Part shown: positions 49,082 to 60,953 of the stretch, piece by piece
How the letters are laid out: the number at the start of each line of letters is the position of its first letter
Position numbering within the stretch: the first letter of the stretch is position 1
Source: Myxococcota bacterium
GTDB lineage: Bacteria > Myxococcota_A > UBA796 > UBA9615 > JAKLKC01
Direction of reading: 5' to 3'
NCBI GenBank assembly: GCA_023150875.1
Contig: JAKLKC010000001.1
Span: 186,001-250,000 of the forward strand
Length of the DNA stretch: 64,000 nucleotides
Notes under the pieces: generated by a model
Database searches by the model: none
What the model saw: only the letters and a program-made list of their open reading frames with translations
Told to the model about the DNA's origin: nothing
Made by a program: the position numbers and the translations under genes

Positions 49082-51283
49082 TCAGATCCCCAGCAGCACG
49101 AACACGGCGCCGGCGTCGGCCCCCCCCTCGTCCCAGCCGGGCGCGGCGATCACCAGGTCGGCGCGGCCGTCGCCGCTCAGGTCCCCGGGGGCGGCCAGGC
49201 GCTCCCCCACCCGGTCACCGGCGTGCTCGCCCACGAAGGCCACGGCGCCGGTGCCCAGCAGGACCTCGCCCGCGAGGGCGTGGAGGGGGCCGGGGACGAC
49301 GAAGACGCCACCGGGCGCGACGTCGCCCCCGGGGGCGCCCACCGCCGCGTCCGACGTGCCGTCCCCGTCCAGGTCCCCCGCCACCACCAGCACCGAGGCG
49401 GCGGATCCGGGGATCCCCACGAAGGAGACCTCCGCGTCCGCGGAGTCCCGGAGCGCGCCGAAGCCCCCGGCGGCCCCCCGGAAGACCGAGACCCTCCCCG
49501 AGCCCGACACCGCGCCGGGAGCCCCCATCCAGATCTCCCCGCGACCGTCGCCGTCCACGTCGCCGAGCCCCCCGACCTGCGCCCCCAGCTCCTCGTGCTC
49601 CCCGGTGGTGACGAACACGGTGTTGGCGTCTTCCATCAGGGTCAGCGACCAGCTCGCGGCGCTCCGCCCCAGGAAGAGGGCGACGCGGCCGTCGCCGGCT
49701 CCGTAGCCGGGGCTCCCCACCAGCAGGTCCGCCACGCCGTCGCCGTCCACGTCCGGCACCACGGCGACCGCGCCCCCGACCCCGGCGCCGTCCGACGGGC
49801 TCCCCAGCAGCGCCACGTCGGCCTGGGAGTCGTCCGAGATCCCCCCCCACGCCCCGCCGAGGAACACGTAGGCGGCGCCCGCCCCCGCGCCGGGGGCACC
49901 CACCACCAGGTCGTCGGTCCCGTCGCCGTCCAGGTCCCCGGCCCCCAGAGCCGCCCCGAAGGCCGATCCCGCCGACGTCCCCTCGATGGCCACCGCCGAG
50001 GCGAGGGGGAAGTCCCCGGCCCCGAACGCCCCCATCACCAGGTAGATCCGACCGAGCCCCCCCGCCGCCCCGGGCGCCCCCACGGCGACGTCGGGCTGCC
50101 CGTCCCCGTCGAAGTCGCCCACCGCCAGCGATGCCCCCGCCTCGTCCCCCGCGGCGCCTCCCAGGAGCAGGGCGTCGGCCAGCAGGTCCAGGGTGAAGGG
50201 ATCGCCGGCCACACCGGGGACCCTCTCGGCCCTCCCCGCCTCCGCCGCCGCCCCACCGCCCCCCGGGGCGCCCACCACCAGGTCCGGCAGGGCGTCGCCC
50301 GCCAGGGCTGCCGCCGCCAACGAGGCGCCCAGCCGGTCGCCGGGCCCCCCGAGCCGCGCCGTGGGGAAGGTGGACAGCGAGATGGGCCCCGCCGCGGGGA
50401 AGGCGTCCACGCGGCCGTCGCAGTCCTCGTCGGTCCCGTCGGCCACGTCCAGGGCGTGGGGACCGATCCCCGGATCGCCATCGTCGCAGTCGCCTTCGCA
50501 GGGGCCGGTCCCGTCGCCATCGCCGTCGGGCACGTCGTCGGGGACCCCGTTGCAGTCGCCGTCGGCCCCGTCGCAGACCTCGACGCCCCCCGGCACCACG
50601 TCGGCCCGACCGTCGTCGCAGTCACCCCCGCAGGTCGTGTAGCCGTCGCCGTCCAGGTCGAACCCCTCGTCCGCCTCCCCGTCGCAGTCCTGGTCCACCC
50701 CGTCGCACGCCTCGACGCCCCCCGGCGCCACGTCGGCCCGGTGGTCGTCGCAGTCGCCCCCGCAGCTCGTGTAGCCGTCGCCGTCCAGGTCGAACCCCTC
50801 GTCCACCTCCCCGTCGCAGTCCTGGTCCACCCCGTCGCACGTCTCCGCGGCGGCGGGGTGCACTCCCGGGTGGGCGTCGTCGCAGTCCCCCTCCCCCTCG
50901 CAGGCCCCGTCCCCGTCGACGTCCAGCCCCGGGTCCTCGTCCGCGTCGCCGTCGCAGTCCTCGTCGGCGTGGTCACACGTCTCGACGGCACCGGTGTACA
51001 CGCCGGGATCGGCGTCGTCGCAGTCCCCGAAGCAGGTCGCCACGCCGTCCCGGTCCGCGTCGAACCCCTCGTCCACCTCGCCGTCGCAGTCGTTGTCCAG
51101 GCCGTCGCACCCCTCCGAAGCATGGGGAGAGACCGACGCCTCGAAGTCGTCGCAGTCCCCCTCCGCCGCGGTGACGCCGTCGCCGTCCGCGTCCCCGCCC
51201 GGGGTGTGTCCGGGGGAGCACCCGGCGGCGAGGGCCAGCGCGGCGAGCAGAGAGGTCATCGCACGGATCGGGCTTTGTCCCAT
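49082..51283 (-). CDS. Lipoprotein with six MopE-type units and FG-GAP repeats
   Basis: A 733-residue surface lipoprotein. Lipobox LALAAGCSPG near residue 20. Residues about 30-290 contain six Cys/Asp-rich units (DADGDG...GDCDD...E.CDGLDNDCDGE). Residues about 310-730 contain about seven FG-GAP/integrin-alpha-like blades with calcium loops (SLAVGDFDGDGQPDVAVGAPG, GDLDGDGTDDLVVGAPG, PDVDGDGVADLLVGSPG). Both parts suggest calcium-dependent binding on the cell surface. ATG with GAGGAGG upstream. It follows the kinase gene on the same strand. Confidence 0.9.
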   Translation of the reverse strand: MGQSPIRAMTSLLAALALAAGCSPGHTPGGDADGDGVTAAEGDCDDFEASVSPHASEGCDGLDNDCDGEVDEGFDADRDGVATCFGDCDDADPGVYTGAVETCDHADEDCDGDADEDPGLDVDGDGACEGEGDCDDAHPGVHPAAAETCDGVDQDCDGEVDEGFDLDGDGYTSCGGDCDDHRADVAPGGVEACDGVDQDCDGEADEGFDLDGDGYTTCGGDCDDGRADVVPGGVEVCDGADGDCNGVPDDVPDGDGDGTGPCEGDCDDGDPGIGPHALDVADGTDEDCDGRVDAFPAAGPISLSTFPTARLGGPGDRLGASLAAAALAGDALPDLVVGAPGGGGAAAEAGRAERVPGVAGDPFTLDLLADALLLGGAAGDEAGASLAVGDFDGDGQPDVAVGAPGAAGGLGRIYLVMGAFGAGDFPLASAVAIEGTSAGSAFGAALGAGDLDGDGTDDLVVGAPGAGAGAAYVFLGGAWGGISDDSQADVALLGSPSDGAGVGGAVAVVPDVDGDGVADLLVGSPGYGAGDGRVALFLGRSAASWSLTLMEDANTVFVTTGEHEELGAQVGGLGDVDGDGRGEIWMGAPGAVSGSGRVSVFRGAAGGFGALRDSADAEVSFVGIPGSAASVLVVAGDLDGDGTSDAAVGAPGGDVAPGGVFVVPGPLHALAGEVLLGTGAVAFVGEHAGDRVGERLAAPGDLSGDGRADLVIAAPGWDEGGADAGAVFVLLGI

Positions 51284-52689: not shown

Positions 52690-54663
52690 TCAGATCGCGT
52701 CCGGGCCGACGATCCGCCCCACCACCGCCGAGGCCGCCACCACCAGCGGGCTGGCGAGGTAGACCTTCCCGGGACCGCTCCGCCCGGGGAAGTTCCGGTT
52801 GATGGCCGACACCGTCACCTGTTCCGGATCCTGGCTGACCCCCGGTCCCGCCTTGATGCAGGCGCCGCAGGAGGGGTCGATCAGGCGGGCCCCCACCCGC
52901 CGGAAGAGCTCGACGTAGCCCCTCTCCTCCGCGTAGCGCTTGATCTTCTGGCTCCCGAACTGGATGTAGAGCTGGACGCCCTCGTGGACCCGCAGCCCCC
53001 TCTCGTCGGCCCGGCGCAAGACCCGGGCGTACATGTCCATGTCCTCCATCTTGCCGCCGGTACACGAGCCGCCGTAGGCGATCTGGATGGGCACCTCCTC
53101 CAGTCCATCGATGGGGATCCCGTTCCGGGGGTCGCCGGGCCGGGCGACCATCACCGGCACCGAGGCCAGGTCCACGTCGAAGGTCCGGGCGTAGGAAGCC
53201 CCCTCGTCGGAGCGCAGCAGGCGCCCCTCCAGGTCCCCGCGGGTGAGACCCGGACGGTTGGCCAGCAGGTAGCGGACGACGACGTCGTCGGCCTCGATGA
53301 TCCCCGTGAACGCGCCGGCCTCCACGGCCATGTTCGTCAGGGTGGCGCGCTCGTCGACGGAGAGGCCGGCGACGCCGGGGCCGGTGAACTCCAGCACCTT
53401 CCCGATCCCCCCGCCCTGGCGGAAGAACGCGTCCGACATCAGGTGGAGGATCAGGTCCTTGGCCGCCACCCCCTCCCGCAGGTGGCCCGAGAGGCGGAAG
53501 CACACCGTCTCGGGGACGGCGACCCGCACGTCCCGGGTGAACCAGGCGTTCGCCATGTCGGTGGAGCCGACGCCGAACGCGAAGGCGCCCAGGGCCCCCG
53601 CGGTGCAGGTGTGGCTGTCGGTCCCGGCGACGACGTCCCCGGGAAGGGCCAGGTCCTCGATCACCGCGTTGTGGCAGATCGCCTCGGAGCCCCCGTCCGG
53701 GGACTCGTCGTACAGGCGGATCCCATGGGCGCGGGTGAACTCCCGCTGGGTGACGGCGAGGCCGTCGGCCCGCTCCAGCAGGCCCATCCTGCGGTGGGCC
53801 TCGGGCATGACCTGGCCGAGGAAGGTCAGGTGGTCCCGGAACGCGAACACCGACTCCGGCTCGGACACCCGGGCGTCGGGCCCGAAGCCCATCCGGAACA
53901 GGGCCGCCGCCATGGGCGTGACGTAGTCGTGGGTGAAGCGGATGGAGGTCCGGACGAACAGGGCGTCGCCGGGGCGCACCGCGGGCACCCCCACGGCGCC
54001 GGTGCCGGCGTCGGCGATGGCCTGGCGGGCCAGGATCTTCTCGGCGATCGTCATGGCCCGGGGTGCCGTGGCGACGGCGGGGGGCCGGACCTCTCCCCTC
54101 AGGCGGGCGCGGTTGTACTGGAAGAGGCCCCCGTACTCGACGATGTCGCGGCTGATGGGATCGAGGCCGCCGGTGAACTCCGCGAGGGGGATCTCCTCCC
54201 CCGCGAGGATCCGGGGCACCAGGCCGAAGTCCGTGGACGTCAGCAGGCCGATGTTCTGGCTGTTCTGGCCGTAGATCTTCTCGATGGAGCGGGCGATCAC
54301 CAGCCGGATCCCCGCCCAGAACTCCGCGTAGGGCGCCGTCTCGCGGGAGGATCCGCAGCCCTTGCTGAGCCCCGAGACCACCACCCCGAAGCCCCCGCCC
54401 TTCACGTCGTCCTTGAGGACGCACCCGCCCCGAAGTCCGATCAGGGCGTACTCCGCCAGGGTCTCGTCGTAGTAGAAGCACACCCAGCCCGGCGTGATCT
54501 CGTCGGTGCTGATGTTGTCCATCAGCGCGCGCTCGGGGTCCCAGGGGAGGTCCTCCCCCACGAACTGGCGCCGGACGAGGTCCGTGTCGGCGGTGAGCTG
54601 GAGGATCCGACCGTCGAACCTCACGGTGGCGGGACGGCGGGGGATCTTCGTCGGGGCGTCCAT
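52690..54663 (-). CDS. One-chain aconitase-superfamily dehydratase, LeuD-LeuC order
   Basis: A 657-residue protein. The swivel domain comes first (residues about 10-200: MDNISTDEITPGW, GVVVSGLSKGCGSSRETAPYAE), then the catalytic LeuC/aconitase domain (about 205-657) with VRTSIRFTHDY, GTDSHTCTAGALGAFAFGVG and DPSCGACIKAGPG. The Cys in SHTC and the CxxC pair are the [4Fe-4S] ligands. This is the reverse of normal aconitase order. The substrate may be isopropylmalate, homocitrate or a related hydroxyacid. ATG at 54663 gives MDAPTKIPRRPATVRF; an upstream ATG at 54756 would add a Pro/Arg-rich tail. No other leu genes are nearby. Confidence 0.9.
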   Translation of the reverse strand: MDAPTKIPRRPATVRFDGRILQLTADTDLVRRQFVGEDLPWDPERALMDNISTDEITPGWVCFYYDETLAEYALIGLRGGCVLKDDVKGGGFGVVVSGLSKGCGSSRETAPYAEFWAGIRLVIARSIEKIYGQNSQNIGLLTSTDFGLVPRILAGEEIPLAEFTGGLDPISRDIVEYGGLFQYNRARLRGEVRPPAVATAPRAMTIAEKILARQAIADAGTGAVGVPAVRPGDALFVRTSIRFTHDYVTPMAAALFRMGFGPDARVSEPESVFAFRDHLTFLGQVMPEAHRRMGLLERADGLAVTQREFTRAHGIRLYDESPDGGSEAICHNAVIEDLALPGDVVAGTDSHTCTAGALGAFAFGVGSTDMANAWFTRDVRVAVPETVCFRLSGHLREGVAAKDLILHLMSDAFFRQGGGIGKVLEFTGPGVAGLSVDERATLTNMAVEAGAFTGIIEADDVVVRYLLANRPGLTRGDLEGRLLRSDEGASYARTFDVDLASVPVMVARPGDPRNGIPIDGLEEVPIQIAYGGSCTGGKMEDMDMYARVLRRADERGLRVHEGVQLYIQFGSQKIKRYAEERGYVELFRRVGARLIDPSCGACIKAGPGVSQDPEQVTVSAINRNFPGRSGPGKVYLASPLVVAASAVVGRIVGPDAI

Positions 54664-54777
54664 TCGGGGGGCGTCTCCATCCGGGGCCGCCGCCGTGCGG
54701 GGGCGGGGCGGGCGCCCGGGCGCGGTGATTCTAGGCACCCGCGGGGGGTGTCGCAACGCGGGGTCGCCGCGTCGGGC

Positions 54778-56853: not shown

Positions 56854-59517
56854 TCAACGACGGGAGATCGCCCGGGCCACCGCCTCGGCGGGATCGGCGC
56901 CGGGTTCCACGGGGGCCCGGAGGGAGGCGGGGACGGCGTCGCCGAAGGCGCGGTCCAGCTCCGCGGCGGCGCGGCGGTCGTCGGCGGTGGCCCGGGGAGG
57001 GAGCAGGTCGGCGGCGGGCACGACGAGCACCCGTGCCCCCCAGGTCCCGGCGAGGGCGACGGAGTCCCTGAGCGTGGCGCCGTGCCGGGCGGCGGCGTCC
57101 GGGGGGACGGGGCCGCGGTCCAGGGAGTCCGGGGGCCGGAGCCAGGCGTCGAGGCGGCCGAGGGCGCGGCTCAGGCGTCGCAGCGCGTCGCCCCCGGGGG
57201 AGGACAGGGGGACGTCCGGCTCCCCCCGGGCCCGGCGCCGGGCGGCGGCCAGGTCCTCGGCGCCGGGGACCAGCACCACCACCGCCGGGCGGAGGGGGGC
57301 GACGACGTTCCGGAGGCGTGCCAGGGCCCCCTCCGCCGTCTGCCCGGGGACGGCGGCGTTGACGACCTCCACCCCCGTCGCCCCCTCGGGGGGGCGGACC
57401 CGGGAGGCGAGGCGGGACGGCCAGGCGAGGGCGTCGGAGCCGGCGCCGGGGTCGAAGGCGGCGGTGCCCCCCAGCACGGCGATCCGGTGGACCCCGGGCG
57501 CCGGGGCCAGGTCCACCCCCGTTCCCCGAAGGCCCCTCTCGTCCAGGTGGATCCGGTCCCCCCAGCGGGCGCCGGGGACGGTGGTCCTCCCCTGGTGGGG
57601 ATCGGAGGCGGTGAGGCCGACGGGGGCCGTGGCGTGTCCCCACAGGCGATCCACGCCGCGGGCCCCCAGCTCCGCCACCACCGCCAGCACCAGCAGGACC
57701 TCCAGGGCCGTCTTGAGGAGGGAGGGGCGGGCGCGAGGGGGGTAGAAGGTCCGGGCCTCTTCGGGGGGACGACCGGGGACATGCTCGAAGGCCCAGGGAG
57801 CGTCCACGGGGCCGCACCCCTTGTCCTCCACGAGGAAGGAGCCCAGGGCCAGGGCGTCGATCCCGCTGCGGGCGAAGCAGTTCCAGGCGTCCCGGGGGGT
57901 GCACACCACGGGCTCCCCCCGCACGTTGAACGAGGTGTTCACCACCGCCGGCAGCCCGGTGCGGGCGTCGAAGGCCGAGATCAGGCCGTGGAACAGGGGG
58001 TCCAGGTCCCGGTCGACGGTCTGGACCCTCGCCGTCCCGTCCACGTGGGTGACGGCGGGCAGGTCCCCCCGACGCTCGGGGCGCACGTTCGGGACCAGGA
58101 GCATGTAGGGGCTGTCCACGTGCAGGTCGAACAGCTCCCCTGCCCTCTCCTCGAGGACCGACGGGGCGAAGGGGCGGAACGCCTCGCGGAACTTCACCTT
58201 CTGGTTGATGAGGTCCTTCATGGCGGGGGACCCGGGGTTGGCGAGGATCGAGCGGCCCCCGAGGGCCCGGGGACCGAACTCCATGCGCCCCTGGAACCAC
58301 CCCACCACGCGGTCCGCGGCCAGCAGGTCCGCGGTCGCCTCCACCAGGTCGGGGCCCGCCAGGTGCCGGTAAGGGATCCGGTGGGCGTCCAGGAAGGCGC
58401 GGATCGCCTCGTCGGAGTAGGCGGGACCCCACCGGGCGTGCTCCATGCGGAAGCGGCGCTCTCCCCCCAGCAGCACGTTCCACACCCAGAAGGCGGCGCC
58501 CACGGCGCCCCCGTCGTCCCCGGAGGCGGGCTGCACGAACAGGTCCCGGAAACCGGAGCGCTCCAGGACGCGCCAGTTGGCGACGGAGTTCAGGCCGACG
58601 CCGCCGCCGAGGCACAGGAAGTCCGCCCCGGTGCGGCGCCGGGCGTCCGTGGCCAGGCGGACCACCACCTCCTCCACCACCTGCTGCCCCGAGCGGGCGA
58701 GGTCCTGGTGGAAGGGGAGGATCTCCGACTCCGGGTCCCGGGGGGGATGGCCGAGGAGCTGGGCCCACCTGGGGGTGAAGGCGACGTCCACGGAGCGGTG
58801 GTGGGCGAAGTACTGCAGGTCCAGGCGGAAGGAGCCGTCCTCGGCGACGTCGATCATCCGGCGGAGGGCGTCCACGAGGGTGGGCCGTCCGTAGGGTGCG
58901 AGGCCCATCACCTTCCACTCGGCGTCGTTGACCTCGAAGCCCAGGTAGGCGGTGAGGGCCGAGTAGAAGAGGCCCAGGGAGTGGGGGAAGCGGATCTCCC
59001 GGTCGATGAGGATCCGGTTGCCCTCCCCCACCCCGCCGGTGGCGGTGCCCCACTCGCCGACCCCGTCCAGGGTGAGGATGGCGGCCCTCTCGAAGGGGGA
59101 CACCAGGAACGCGCTGGCGGCGTGGGCCATGTGGTGCTCGCAGAAGAGCACCGGGCAGTCCCGATCGACCCCCAGCTCCCGCCGGACCTCGTCGCCGATC
59201 CACAGCTTGCGGGCGAGCCACTCCGGGATCCCGCGGCGGAAGGCGCGGTAGGAGCGGGGGAAGGTGGCGACGGCGCTGGTCAGGATCCGCTCGAACTTGA
59301 TCCAGGGCTTCTCGTAGAAGACGACGTGGGAGAGCTCGTAGGGGGAGATCCCCGCCTGGTCCAGGCAGTAGCGCACGGCGTTGCGGGGGTAGGAGGCGTC
59401 GTGCTTCTTGCGGGTGAACCTCTCCTCGGCGGCGGCGGCCACCAGCACCCCGTCCCGCACCAGGGCCGCGGCGGAGTCGTGGTACCAGGCGGAGATCCCG
59501 AGGATGTACGACGTCAT
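56854..59517 (-). CDS. NodU-type carbamoyltransferase fused to SGNH-like domain
   Basis: An 887-residue protein. Residues 1-580 are a NodU/CmcH/TobZ carbamoyltransferase: ILGISAWYHDSAAALV, FCEHHMAHAASAF (metal site), LCLGGGVGLNSVANW, QGRMEFGPRALGGRSILANP and LPAVVNTSFNVRGEPVV. It should carry a carbamoyl group from carbamoyl phosphate to a hydroxyl of a glycan or natural product. A membrane segment (ALEVLLVLAVVAELGA, about 597-612) is followed by an SGNH-hydrolase-like part (about 640-880, HRIAVLGGTAAFDPGAGSDALAWPSRLASRV, VEVVNAAVPGQTAEGALARL). The second domain is less certain. ATG at 59517. Follows the small membrane gene by 10 bases. Confidence 0.88.
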   Translation of the reverse strand: MTSYILGISAWYHDSAAALVRDGVLVAAAAEERFTRKKHDASYPRNAVRYCLDQAGISPYELSHVVFYEKPWIKFERILTSAVATFPRSYRAFRRGIPEWLARKLWIGDEVRRELGVDRDCPVLFCEHHMAHAASAFLVSPFERAAILTLDGVGEWGTATGGVGEGNRILIDREIRFPHSLGLFYSALTAYLGFEVNDAEWKVMGLAPYGRPTLVDALRRMIDVAEDGSFRLDLQYFAHHRSVDVAFTPRWAQLLGHPPRDPESEILPFHQDLARSGQQVVEEVVVRLATDARRRTGADFLCLGGGVGLNSVANWRVLERSGFRDLFVQPASGDDGGAVGAAFWVWNVLLGGERRFRMEHARWGPAYSDEAIRAFLDAHRIPYRHLAGPDLVEATADLLAADRVVGWFQGRMEFGPRALGGRSILANPGSPAMKDLINQKVKFREAFRPFAPSVLEERAGELFDLHVDSPYMLLVPNVRPERRGDLPAVTHVDGTARVQTVDRDLDPLFHGLISAFDARTGLPAVVNTSFNVRGEPVVCTPRDAWNCFARSGIDALALGSFLVEDKGCGPVDAPWAFEHVPGRPPEEARTFYPPRARPSLLKTALEVLLVLAVVAELGARGVDRLWGHATAPVGLTASDPHQGRTTVPGARWGDRIHLDERGLRGTGVDLAPAPGVHRIAVLGGTAAFDPGAGSDALAWPSRLASRVRPPEGATGVEVVNAAVPGQTAEGALARLRNVVAPLRPAVVVLVPGAEDLAAARRRARGEPDVPLSSPGGDALRRLSRALGRLDAWLRPPDSLDRGPVPPDAAARHGATLRDSVALAGTWGARVLVVPAADLLPPRATADDRRAAAELDRAFGDAVPASLRAPVEPGADPAEAVARAISRR

Positions 59518-59527
59518 GGGGCGAGGT

Positions 59528-59743
59528 TCAGAAGGGATGGGTGTGCCGCTCGACGCCGCCCTTCACGGGGTGGTGGGGCAGCCAGTACGAGTCCCTCCGC
59601 CCCCCCCTCGCCCCCAGCGGATCCCGCAGCCGGATCCACGCCACCAGCGGCACGACCGCGAAGTAGACCAGCGTCACCAGCACGGCGGTCTGCACGGCCA
59701 GTACGCGGCGGGCGATGGACCGGACGCGGGAGCCTTCGGGCAT
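59528..59743 (-). CDS. Small membrane protein of the carbamoyltransferase cassette
   Basis: A 71-residue protein with one membrane helix (VLAVQTAVLVTLVYFAVVPLVAWI) and the tail DPLGARGGRRDSYWLPHHP. In my memory small proteins ending with DPL...SYW commonly sit next to NodU-type carbamoyltransferases in glycan clusters, which fits the 10-base spacing here. Role unknown, perhaps complex assembly at the membrane. Confidence 0.7.
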   Translation of the reverse strand: MPEGSRVRSIARRVLAVQTAVLVTLVYFAVVPLVAWIRLRDPLGARGGRRDSYWLPHHPVKGGVERHTHPF

Positions 59744-59902: not shown

Positions 59903-60325
59903 TCAGCCTGCACCGGCCGCCAAGTCGTCCGCCACCGCCCCCGCCACGTCGTCGACCGACTCACGGTCCACGGAGAGGTGCTGCTGCGCCCGGAGCCCGA
60001 ACGGCAGTTCGGCCCAGGGGACCGCCCCCACCAGCACCGGTACGAGCCGCTTGCCCTGCCTCCGGCTCGCGTTCAGCGCCGCGCCGAGTTCGATGGCGGT
60101 CCAGGAGCCATCGACGTAGTCCTGCGACACGAGGAGCACGAGGCTCCGGCTCTCCTCCATCGCACGCTGCACCGCCACGTCCCAGTCGTCCCCGGCGAGG
60201 AGTTCTTCATCCGTCCAGACCTTCAGTCCCCTGCCACGAAGCGCGGATGCGATCTCCCGCGCGATGTCCGAATCGCTGCGGGCGTGGGAGATGAACACGT
60301 CGTAGGCGCGATTAGCCATCTTCAC
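59903..60325 (-). CDS. TIR-domain protein (second of pair)
   Basis: A 140-residue protein that is almost only a TIR domain: YDVFISHARSDSDIAREIASALRGRGLKVWTDEELLAGDDWD, LVLLVSQDYVDGSWTAIELGAALNAS with the catalytic-type Glu in the AIELG helix, and KRLVPVLVG. Bacterial TIR domains cut NAD+ or signal in antiviral defence. No partner domain is present in the chain. GTG at 60325 (ATG at 60319 possible), overlapping the end of the other TIR gene by 14 bases. Confidence 0.9.
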   Translation of the reverse strand: MKMANRAYDVFISHARSDSDIAREIASALRGRGLKVWTDEELLAGDDWDVAVQRAMEESRSLVLLVSQDYVDGSWTAIELGAALNASRRQGKRLVPVLVGAVPWAELPFGLRAQQHLSVDRESVDDVAGAVADDLAAGAG

Positions 60326-60743
60326 GACCCTTTCCCCCGACCCGCGCGCGGAGTTGGGAGAGGTAGCCCTCGATCTCGTTGAGCTCCAGGAAGTGGGTCC
60401 GCTTCAGGCGAACGGGCATCGCCGCATCGGCCCCGATGGACTCCGCCGACTCGCCGTGGAGGAGGACGACGATGCGCTTCCGCTGGCCCCAGAAGATCCC
60501 GATCTCCATGAGCAGGTACCGGCTCTGCTTCGCCCACGGGGTCAACAGCACGAGGGCCTCGTCCGCCCCATCCGCCGCCTCCAGGATCCGGTCCTCGAAG
60601 TCGTCCCCGTGGTCGATGTCTGCCGCGTCCAGGAAGGCCGACGCACCGGCCTCCTCGACGTGCCGCGCGATCTGCCGTGCCACCCACGTGTCAACCGAAG
60701 AGTGGGAGATGAAAACAGAATAGCGATCCCGGACCTTGACCAT
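60312..60743 (-). CDS. TIR-domain protein (first of pair)
   Basis: A 143-residue TIR domain: YSVFISHSSVDTWVARQIARHVEEAGASAFLDAADIDHGDDFED, LVLLTPWAKQSRYLLMEIGIFWGQRKRIVVLL with Glu in LLMEIG at the catalytic place, and a C-terminal helix. It differs substantially from the second TIR protein, so the pair is not a recent duplication. The overlap of the genes suggests one transcript. Both are somewhat lower in G+C than their neighbours. Confidence 0.9.
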   Translation of the reverse strand: MVKVRDRYSVFISHSSVDTWVARQIARHVEEAGASAFLDAADIDHGDDFEDRILEAADGADEALVLLTPWAKQSRYLLMEIGIFWGQRKRIVVLLHGESAESIGADAAMPVRLKRTHFLELNEIEGYLSQLRARVGGKGREDG

Positions 60744-60953
60744 GCCTGAGCCCCGCCCCCACTCGTCTCCACCGACGGAGGTTAGCACTCGATCCCGTCC
60801 CCCGCAAGGCTGAACCGGGCGCGAACCCACCGGACCCGGCTCGGCCAGCCCCAACCGTCAGGGCGTCCGCCCCCACTCTCGCCCGCCCGCCGGGACGCCC
60901 CGACGCCATCGTTGATCCCGCCCGCTCCCTGCCTTAAATTCCCGGTTCCTCCG

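What the first reader, a model, noticed from the sequence alone, without database searches (positions are those of the whole stretch)
56854..59743. Carbamoyltransferase fused to a membrane-tethered SGNH-like domain
NodU-type enzymes are normally about 580 residues. Here about 300 extra residues include a membrane helix and an SGNH-like region. A single protein might add a carbamoyl group and also act on esters of the same glycan.
Basis: partly seen in the sequence, partly recalled or inferred. Interest (0 to 1): 0.5.

Follow-up and report, generated by a model that had tools for sequence, protein, structure and literature searches.

The report
Carbamoyl-transferase fused to dead SGNH domain
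A bacterial enzyme that attaches carbamoyl groups is fused, through one predicted membrane helix, to a domain shaped like an esterase; in this organism that domain appears to have lost its catalytic residues, while two related fusions elsewhere keep them.

Summary
The gene is real: one 887-residue reading frame, minus strand, 56854-59517. Residues 5-564 are a class III (TobZ/GdmN-type) carbamoyltransferase with the catalytic His and four metal ligands in place. A predicted membrane helix follows (about 600-621), then a domain that AlphaFold models with an SGNH fold (best solved match CgnD of crocagin biosynthesis, Z 19.5). So the proposed architecture is confirmed. The esterase activity is not: against 12 chosen homologues the nucleophile Ser (12 of 12) is Thr685, His (12 of 12) is Glu871, Asn (12 of 12) is Glu754 and Asp (9 of 12) is Ala868; in a wider set Ser and His are kept wherever aligned (47 of 47, 36 of 36), Asn and Asp less so. 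Two fusions with the same order, in two MAGs of another family of the phylum, keep all four. Apart from these, none showed in 80 related genome loci, 376 other same-phylum genomes or 343 Planctomycetota genomes, within the limits of capped lists. Elsewhere separate SGNH genes lie beside such carbamoyltransferases, sometimes in an SxtJ-CTase-DUF5989-SGNH row. Most likely: a membrane-tethered carbamoyltransferase with a non-catalytic SGNH-fold domain. A rare variant; modest interest.

The parts
56854..59517 (-). Whole gene: carbamoyltransferase - membrane helix - SGNH-like protein, 887 aa, ATG start
   Evidence: codon-position G+C
57826..59505 (-). Class III carbamoyltransferase, residues 5-564 (Carbam_trans_N 5-342, Carbam_trans_C 396-564). 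Base His13; metal ligands His128, His132, Asp151, Asp334 by alignment to GdmN
   Evidence: Pfam; PDB alignment with residue roles from PMC9633730 (passages); invariance in 14 sequences
57655..57720 (-). Predicted single membrane helix, residues 600-621
   Evidence: hydropathy 1.94 over residues 600-618; helix in models
56857..57552 (-). SGNH-fold domain with N-terminal extension, residues about 656-887; lacks the catalytic residues
   Evidence: model and fold searches; profile search
57463..57465 (-). Thr685 in place of the SGNH nucleophile Ser (block I, GGT for GGS)
   Evidence: Ser in 12 of 12 chosen homologues; 47 of 47 with a letter there in the wider set
57256..57258 (-). Glu754 in place of the oxyanion Asn (block III, GAED for GxND)
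   Evidence: Asn in 12 of 12 chosen homologues; 36 of 44 in the wider set
56905..56916 (-). Ala868-x-x-Glu871 in place of the block V Asp-x-x-His
   Evidence: His in 12 of 12, Asp in 9 of 12 chosen homologues; His 36 of 36 and Asp 24 of 36 in the wider set, where the window's own tail is left unaligned

Best explanation
A class III O-carbamoyltransferase anchored in the inner membrane by one helix. Shown by sequence and model: the carbamoyltransferase half has the known catalytic residues, and the C-terminal half has an SGNH fold without the catalytic Ser and His. Inferred: the N-terminal half works in the cytoplasm, where ATP and carbamoyl phosphate are, makes carbamoyl-AMP and carbamoylates a hydroxyl of a membrane-associated acceptor (lipid-linked sugar or lipid-like product). 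The SGNH-fold half, probably across the membrane, no longer catalyses but is kept as an anchor or ligand-binding part. The fusion joins two genes that lie side by side in some other bacteria. In the two relatives with an intact triad the second half is probably an active hydrolase or acyltransferase on the same product.
For: Catalytic residues of the carbamoyltransferase kept (roles from PMC9633730, passages). Predicted membrane helix. SGNH fold: Foldseek 48 chains at E <= 0.001, the 50 rows shown being chiefly GDSL/SGNH esterases, thioesterase I and acetylxylan esterases; VIA-align best Z 19.5 to CgnD over 233 residues. Loss of Ser and His. Two fusions with intact motifs; beside one of them lies a gene like a polysaccharide flippase (Polysacc_synt E 3e-7). 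Adjacent separate SGNH genes: 8 of 78 non-fused loci have an SGNH ORF within 300 bp of the carbamoyltransferase, all on the same strand, against 17 SGNH ORFs further out (Fisher p 0.009 on related data). SxtJ-CTase-DUF5989-SGNH rows confirmed by Pfam.
Against: The closest carbamoyltransferases read in the same class are stand-alone, so the extra part is not needed by this enzyme type. 70 of 78 non-fused loci have no SGNH ORF within 300 bp. Charges beside the helix do not settle the topology (4 Lys/Arg and 4 Asp/Glu before, 3 and 2 after). No glycan or lipid gene was recognised among the window neighbours scanned. Selection on the SGNH-like domain could not be tested for want of close relatives.
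Confidence: 0.5

Rival explanations
1. Bifunctional enzyme: it carbamoylates a glycan and also cleaves or transfers its esters.
For: SGNH fold; intact motifs in the two other fusions.
Against: Nucleophile, oxyanion Asn, Asp and His all replaced in this protein; Ser and His are kept in every wider homologue that has a letter there; no displaced block V nearby.
Confidence: 0.06
2. The SGNH half is a decaying remnant with no function; only the carbamoyltransferase matters, like its stand-alone relatives.
For: Active-site residues lost and 75 residues shorter than L134 (887 against 962); stand-alone enzymes do without it.
Against: Frame open with a coding pattern to its end; the model keeps a confident SGNH core.
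Confidence: 0.28
3. The SGNH half is a dimerisation or substrate-binding part on the same, cytoplasmic side as the transferase, like the extra C-terminal domain of GdmN.
For: GdmN dimerises through a C-terminal auxiliary domain, and a strain with GdmN cut at residue 575 is described as failing to accumulate product (PMC9633730, passages). CgnD, the best structural match, forms a dimer and belongs to a pathway that also has the carbamoyltransferase CgnI (PMC10070186, passages).
Against: The hydrophobic helix between the halves suggests membrane insertion. The other crocagin-like clusters carry a glycosyltransferase instead of the carbamoyltransferase, so CgnD is not tied to one. GdmN's extra domain was not compared with this one here.
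Confidence: 0.12
4. Assembly or annotation artefact that joins two neighbouring genes.
For: The assembly is a fragmented draft in 180 contigs.
Against: Continuous coding pattern; the same order in two other genomes.
Confidence: 0.03

Closest known systems
Class III O-carbamoyltransferases (TobZ, GdmN; NodU-like)
   Same: Both Pfam domains; His13 and the four metal ligands align with GdmN
   Different: A predicted membrane helix and an SGNH-fold domain are added; scores 160.7 against the NodU cut-off of 1000, so it is not filed as NodU
CgnD (crocagin biosynthesis, PDB 8a2n)
   Same: Best structural match, Z 19.5 over 233 residues including the N-terminal extension; the family profile aligns over nearly its whole length; its pathway also has a carbamoyltransferase, CgnI
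   Different: CgnD is a separate protein with a catalytic triad and classed as SGNH/GDSL (PMC10885120, passage); the window's domain lacks the triad and follows a hydrophobic helix
AT3-SGNH and MBOAT-SGNH acyl-transfer systems (OafB, PatA/PatB)
   Same: A group-transfer module coupled to an SGNH domain behind a membrane helix (OafB: PMC9833829, passages) or working with an SGNH partner (PatA/PatB: PMC12148441, start of abstract)
   Different: The donor module here is a carbamoyltransferase, not a multi-helix membrane acyltransferase; OafB needs its SGNH triad, which is lost here
SxtJ - carbamoyltransferase - DUF5989 - SGNH gene rows
   Same: The same two enzyme types encoded side by side (L147; without a called SxtJ gene in L146 and L152)
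   Different: Separate genes, with small proteins between them

Membership tests
Class III carbamoyltransferase | Carbam_trans_N and Carbam_trans_C above cut-off | tested here: met
   257.3 and 242 bits against 24 and 27
Class III carbamoyltransferase | Catalytic His and 2 His + 2 Asp metal site | tested here: met
   H13, H128, H132, D151, D334 align with GdmN H27, H133, H137, D156, D333
NodU (NCBIfam NF041651) | Score over the equivalog cut-off | tested here: not met
   160.7 against 1000
SGNH hydrolase superfamily | SGNH fold | tested here: met
   Foldseek top matches and VIA-align Z 19.5 on a predicted model
SGNH hydrolase superfamily | Block I nucleophile Ser | tested here: not met
   Thr685; Ser in 12 of 12 and 47 of 47
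SGNH hydrolase superfamily | Block II Gly | tested here: met
   Gly725
SGNH hydrolase superfamily | Block III Asn | tested here: not met
   Glu754; 8 of 44 wider homologues also lack Asn
SGNH hydrolase superfamily | Block V Asp and His | tested here: not met
   Ala868 and Glu871
SGNH hydrolase superfamily | Pfam gathering score of Lipase_GDSL or NonGDSL | tested here: not met
   17.9 against 23.6 and 20.2 against 80 for the whole protein
AT3-SGNH acyltransferase | Acyltransferase-3 domain | tested here: not met
   No such family among the five Pfam matches at E <= 1
Carbamoyl transfer to a glycan | Product | not testable with these tools
   needs biochemistry

The most novel reading that the evidence does not exclude
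Fused carbamoyltransferase-SGNH proteins form a transmembrane carbamoylation machine analogous to AT3-SGNH and MBOAT-SGNH acyltransferases: in the intact relatives the outer SGNH domain places or removes carbamoyl groups on exported molecules, and in the window the dead domain is kept to hold the acceptor. The SxtJ-CTase-DUF5989-SGNH rows would be the split form of that machine.
Probability: 0.08. Interest if true: 0.65.

Novelty: new variant of a known kind. Interest (0 to 1): 0.34.

Why it matters
The fusion strengthens the case that a carbamoyltransferase and an SGNH protein work together, which gene neighbourhood alone only suggests. It offers single-protein handles (L134 and L135 with intact motifs, the window with a natural loss) to ask what the SGNH partner does in the SxtJ-CTase-DUF5989-SGNH rows. 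A search of the held paper library for DUF5989 found 0 papers, and four searches combining carbamoyltransferase with SGNH, GDSL or related terms listed no paper whose title or abstract start describes such a fusion; subscription papers are mostly not held.

Tried and rejected
Frameshift or displaced block V: three minus-strand frames from 57300 to 56600 read; the only DxxH is an unrelated one past the stop.

Fusion elsewhere. 20 top carbamoyltransferase loci of the same class were read: no SGNH match in their called genes. 40 loci in all were read in that call (also those); none of the called carbamoyltransferase genes carries the SGNH match, though the caller missed the transferase in L122-L124. 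141 relatives searched with the C-terminal part: 58 match (own genome included); compared by eye with the carbamoyltransferase places, only the window's gene is shared among listed rows (the list is cut). 377 same-phylum genomes (own included) searched with the whole protein: 169 match at E <= 1e-150; only the own genome, G249 and G195 reach beyond query residue 700 without stops among listed rows (list cut, at most two candidates scored per genome). G009 reaches 788 with stops; tblastn on that locus (L136) gives the transferase alone. Family f12 has 22 genomes, 19 match, 2 fused. 343 Planctomycetota genomes: 14 match at E <= 1e-190; 13 stop at query residue 582 or before, one reaches 808 with two stops inside.

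Single or repeated fusion: the transferase tree (34 rows) does not put the window with L134/L135, but does not reject it (p-AU 0.364). In the SGNH tree the window sits on a long branch, its nearest rows are L134 and L135, and the group with them and L152 has support 47; the clade test there did not finish. Undecided.

Neighbours: those scanned in the window are a porin-like protein, a YceI-like protein, two TIR proteins, an aconitase-like protein, a metallo-beta-lactamase-fold protein, an InhA-MAM-like protein, a protein kinase and one without a match; no operon partner recognised. Not all window genes were scanned.

Limits: gene calls come from a G+C-based script of mine that fails on low-GC loci (5 of 80 loci unlisted; six-frame ORFs used). 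The SGNH profile was built from L134/L135 and hits in the same loci. The 12 homologues were picked by me from the 27 SGNH ORFs; one search repeats the count on 49 rows besides the window (L154/L155 dropped as the same contigs as L135/L134), some of which may be chance hits. L211 counts an SGNH gene between two transferases.

Full report
Observation. The frame 56854-59517 on the minus strand is open for 887 codons from ATG. Codon-position G+C shows a coding pattern throughout, also over the extra part. Pfam finds both carbamoyltransferase domains, residues 5-342 and 396-564, far above cut-off, and only faint Lipase_GDSL and NonGDSL matches behind them. The most hydrophobic 19-residue stretch is 600-618.

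The transferase half. It aligns with solved class III enzymes over about 550 residues (7xb6 E 4.9e-97, GdmN E 3.7e-90, TobZ E 6.4e-88). The GdmN paper names H27 as the base and H133, H137, D156 and D333 as metal ligands (PMC9633730, passages); these align with H13, H128, H132, D151 and D334 here, all invariant in a 14-sequence alignment. It falls far short of the NodU equivalog (160.7 against 1000).

The extra half. AlphaFold with 13 sequences gives mean pLDDT 77.9, a helix at the expected membrane segment and an alpha/beta domain. Foldseek lists chiefly GDSL/SGNH esterases, thioesterase I and acetylxylan esterases (48 chains at E <= 0.001; TM-scores in the rows shown 0.25-0.42 by the query's length and 0.32-0.61 by the target's). 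VIA-align ranks CgnD of crocagin biosynthesis first, Z 19.5, rmsd 3.9, 233 aligned, above the next row at 16.0. A profile of the family aligns with CgnD over nearly its full length (E 2.1e-10), while shorter stretches of other SGNH esterases score better (best E 1.7e-20). So the fold is SGNH, with an N-terminal extension shared with CgnD. The whole-protein model has a confident transferase, an unreliable linker (572-604) and a helix at 600-621.

Active site. In the alignment of the window with 12 homologues that I picked, Ser, Asn and His of the SGNH blocks are present in 12 of 12 and the block V Asp in 9 of 12; the window has Thr685, Glu754, Glu871 and Ala868. In a wider, profile-aligned set of 49 other rows, Ser is present in 47 of the 47 with a letter there and His in 36 of 36, but Asn only in 36 of 44 and Asp in 24 of 36. 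Loss of Ser and His is therefore the telling part. Block II Gly725 is kept. The minus-strand frames near the 3' end hold no lost block V. This protein's SGNH domain is very unlikely to be a hydrolase.

Related fusions. A search of 377 same-phylum genomes with the whole protein found two others reaching into the SGNH half without stops, G249 and G195, read as L134 (962 aa) and L135 (968 aa as called, 965 from the next ATG). Contigs of the same lengths and matches appear among the GTDB loci as SXRM01000022.1 and CAIPXZ010000673.1, both MAGs. They are 70% identical to each other and 48-49% to the window, and keep GGS, GxND and DxxH. Among 80 loci of that scan only these two are fused by six-frame analysis. 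In their family 2 of 22 genomes have it, and none of 14 strong Planctomycetota matches is fused in one frame. The fusion is rare and patchy. Trees leave open whether it arose once: the transferase data neither group the three nor reject the group (p-AU 0.364), while the window's SGNH domain is nearest to those of L134 and L135 on a long branch with weak support (47).

Split forms. In 8 of 78 non-fused loci an SGNH ORF lies within 300 bp of the transferase on the same strand: L188, L189 and L227 (Acidobacteriota), L194, L206 and L211 (Planctomycetota), L215 (Desulfocicer vacuolatum) and L230 (Archangium MAG). In 70 it does not. The Fisher p of 0.009 is indicative only, since loci are related and the profile was partly built from them. 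L147 has SxtJ, transferase, DUF5989 and SGNH in a row; L146 and L152 have transferase, DUF5989 and SGNH; L131 has transferase, SxtJ and DUF5989. A gene of L167 of the size and place of SxtJ matched Tetraspanin below cut-off and not SxtJ.

Surroundings. No window neighbour that was scanned points to a glycan or lipid pathway. Near L134 lie a polysaccharide-flippase-like protein, a methyltransferase, an RNA-ligase-like protein and an alpha/beta hydrolase; near L135 a FeeM-like synthase and a methyltransferase. None of the window neighbours scanned is a flippase, methyltransferase or FeeM-like protein.

Mechanism. A cytoplasmic carbamoyltransferase held at the membrane is the simplest reading, since ATP and carbamoyl phosphate are cytoplasmic. 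The other side of the membrane for the SGNH half is inferred; flanking charges are not decisive. Two known systems show how such parts can be paired. [quoted passage not shown] In crocagin biosynthesis the SGNH-type hydrolase CgnD releases the core scaffold and CgnI of the same pathway carbamoylates it, in an order that the authors leave open; they also note that the other crocagin-like clusters have a glycosyltransferase in place of the carbamoyltransferase (PMC10070186, passages), which weakens that parallel. Neither is a fusion with a carbamoyltransferase. In the window the lost triad leaves anchoring or ligand binding (0.5), decay (0.28) or a same-side dimerisation part (0.12). On checking I lowered the first from 0.55 and the last from 0.15, because the crocagin parallel is weaker than I had written and the odds overlapped.

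Verdict. The fusion is a rare variant of known parts; its value is as a handle on why carbamoyltransferases and SGNH proteins keep company.

Noticed in passing
window 59903-60325 and 60312-60854, minus strand: Two overlapping TIR-domain genes upstream of the fusion gene (Pfam TIR_2 E 5e-25 and 4e-16), with a 116-residue ORF without Pfam match between them and the fusion gene; possibly a defence or signalling pair.
   Followed up: partly
L120:2477-5326 (+), genome G083: A different fusion: carbamoyltransferase with a C-terminal Trm112-like stretch (below cut-off) and methyltransferase domain, 950 aa.
   Followed up: no
L115:7369-9444 (-), genome G115: An SGNH domain fused to an FGE-sulfatase-type domain (692 aa), encoded next to a carbamoyltransferase.
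   Followed up: no
L135:3749-5698 (-): Beside one intact fusion lie a FeeM-like N-acyl amino acid synthase with a cyclic-nucleotide-binding domain and a methyltransferase.
   Followed up: partly
window 52690-54756, minus strand: Aconitase-like protein in which the Aconitase_C match (125-173) precedes the Aconitase match (271-680).
   Followed up: no
window 49082-51283, minus strand: 733-residue ORF with many DGDGD-type, calcium-binding-like repeats (by eye).
   Followed up: no
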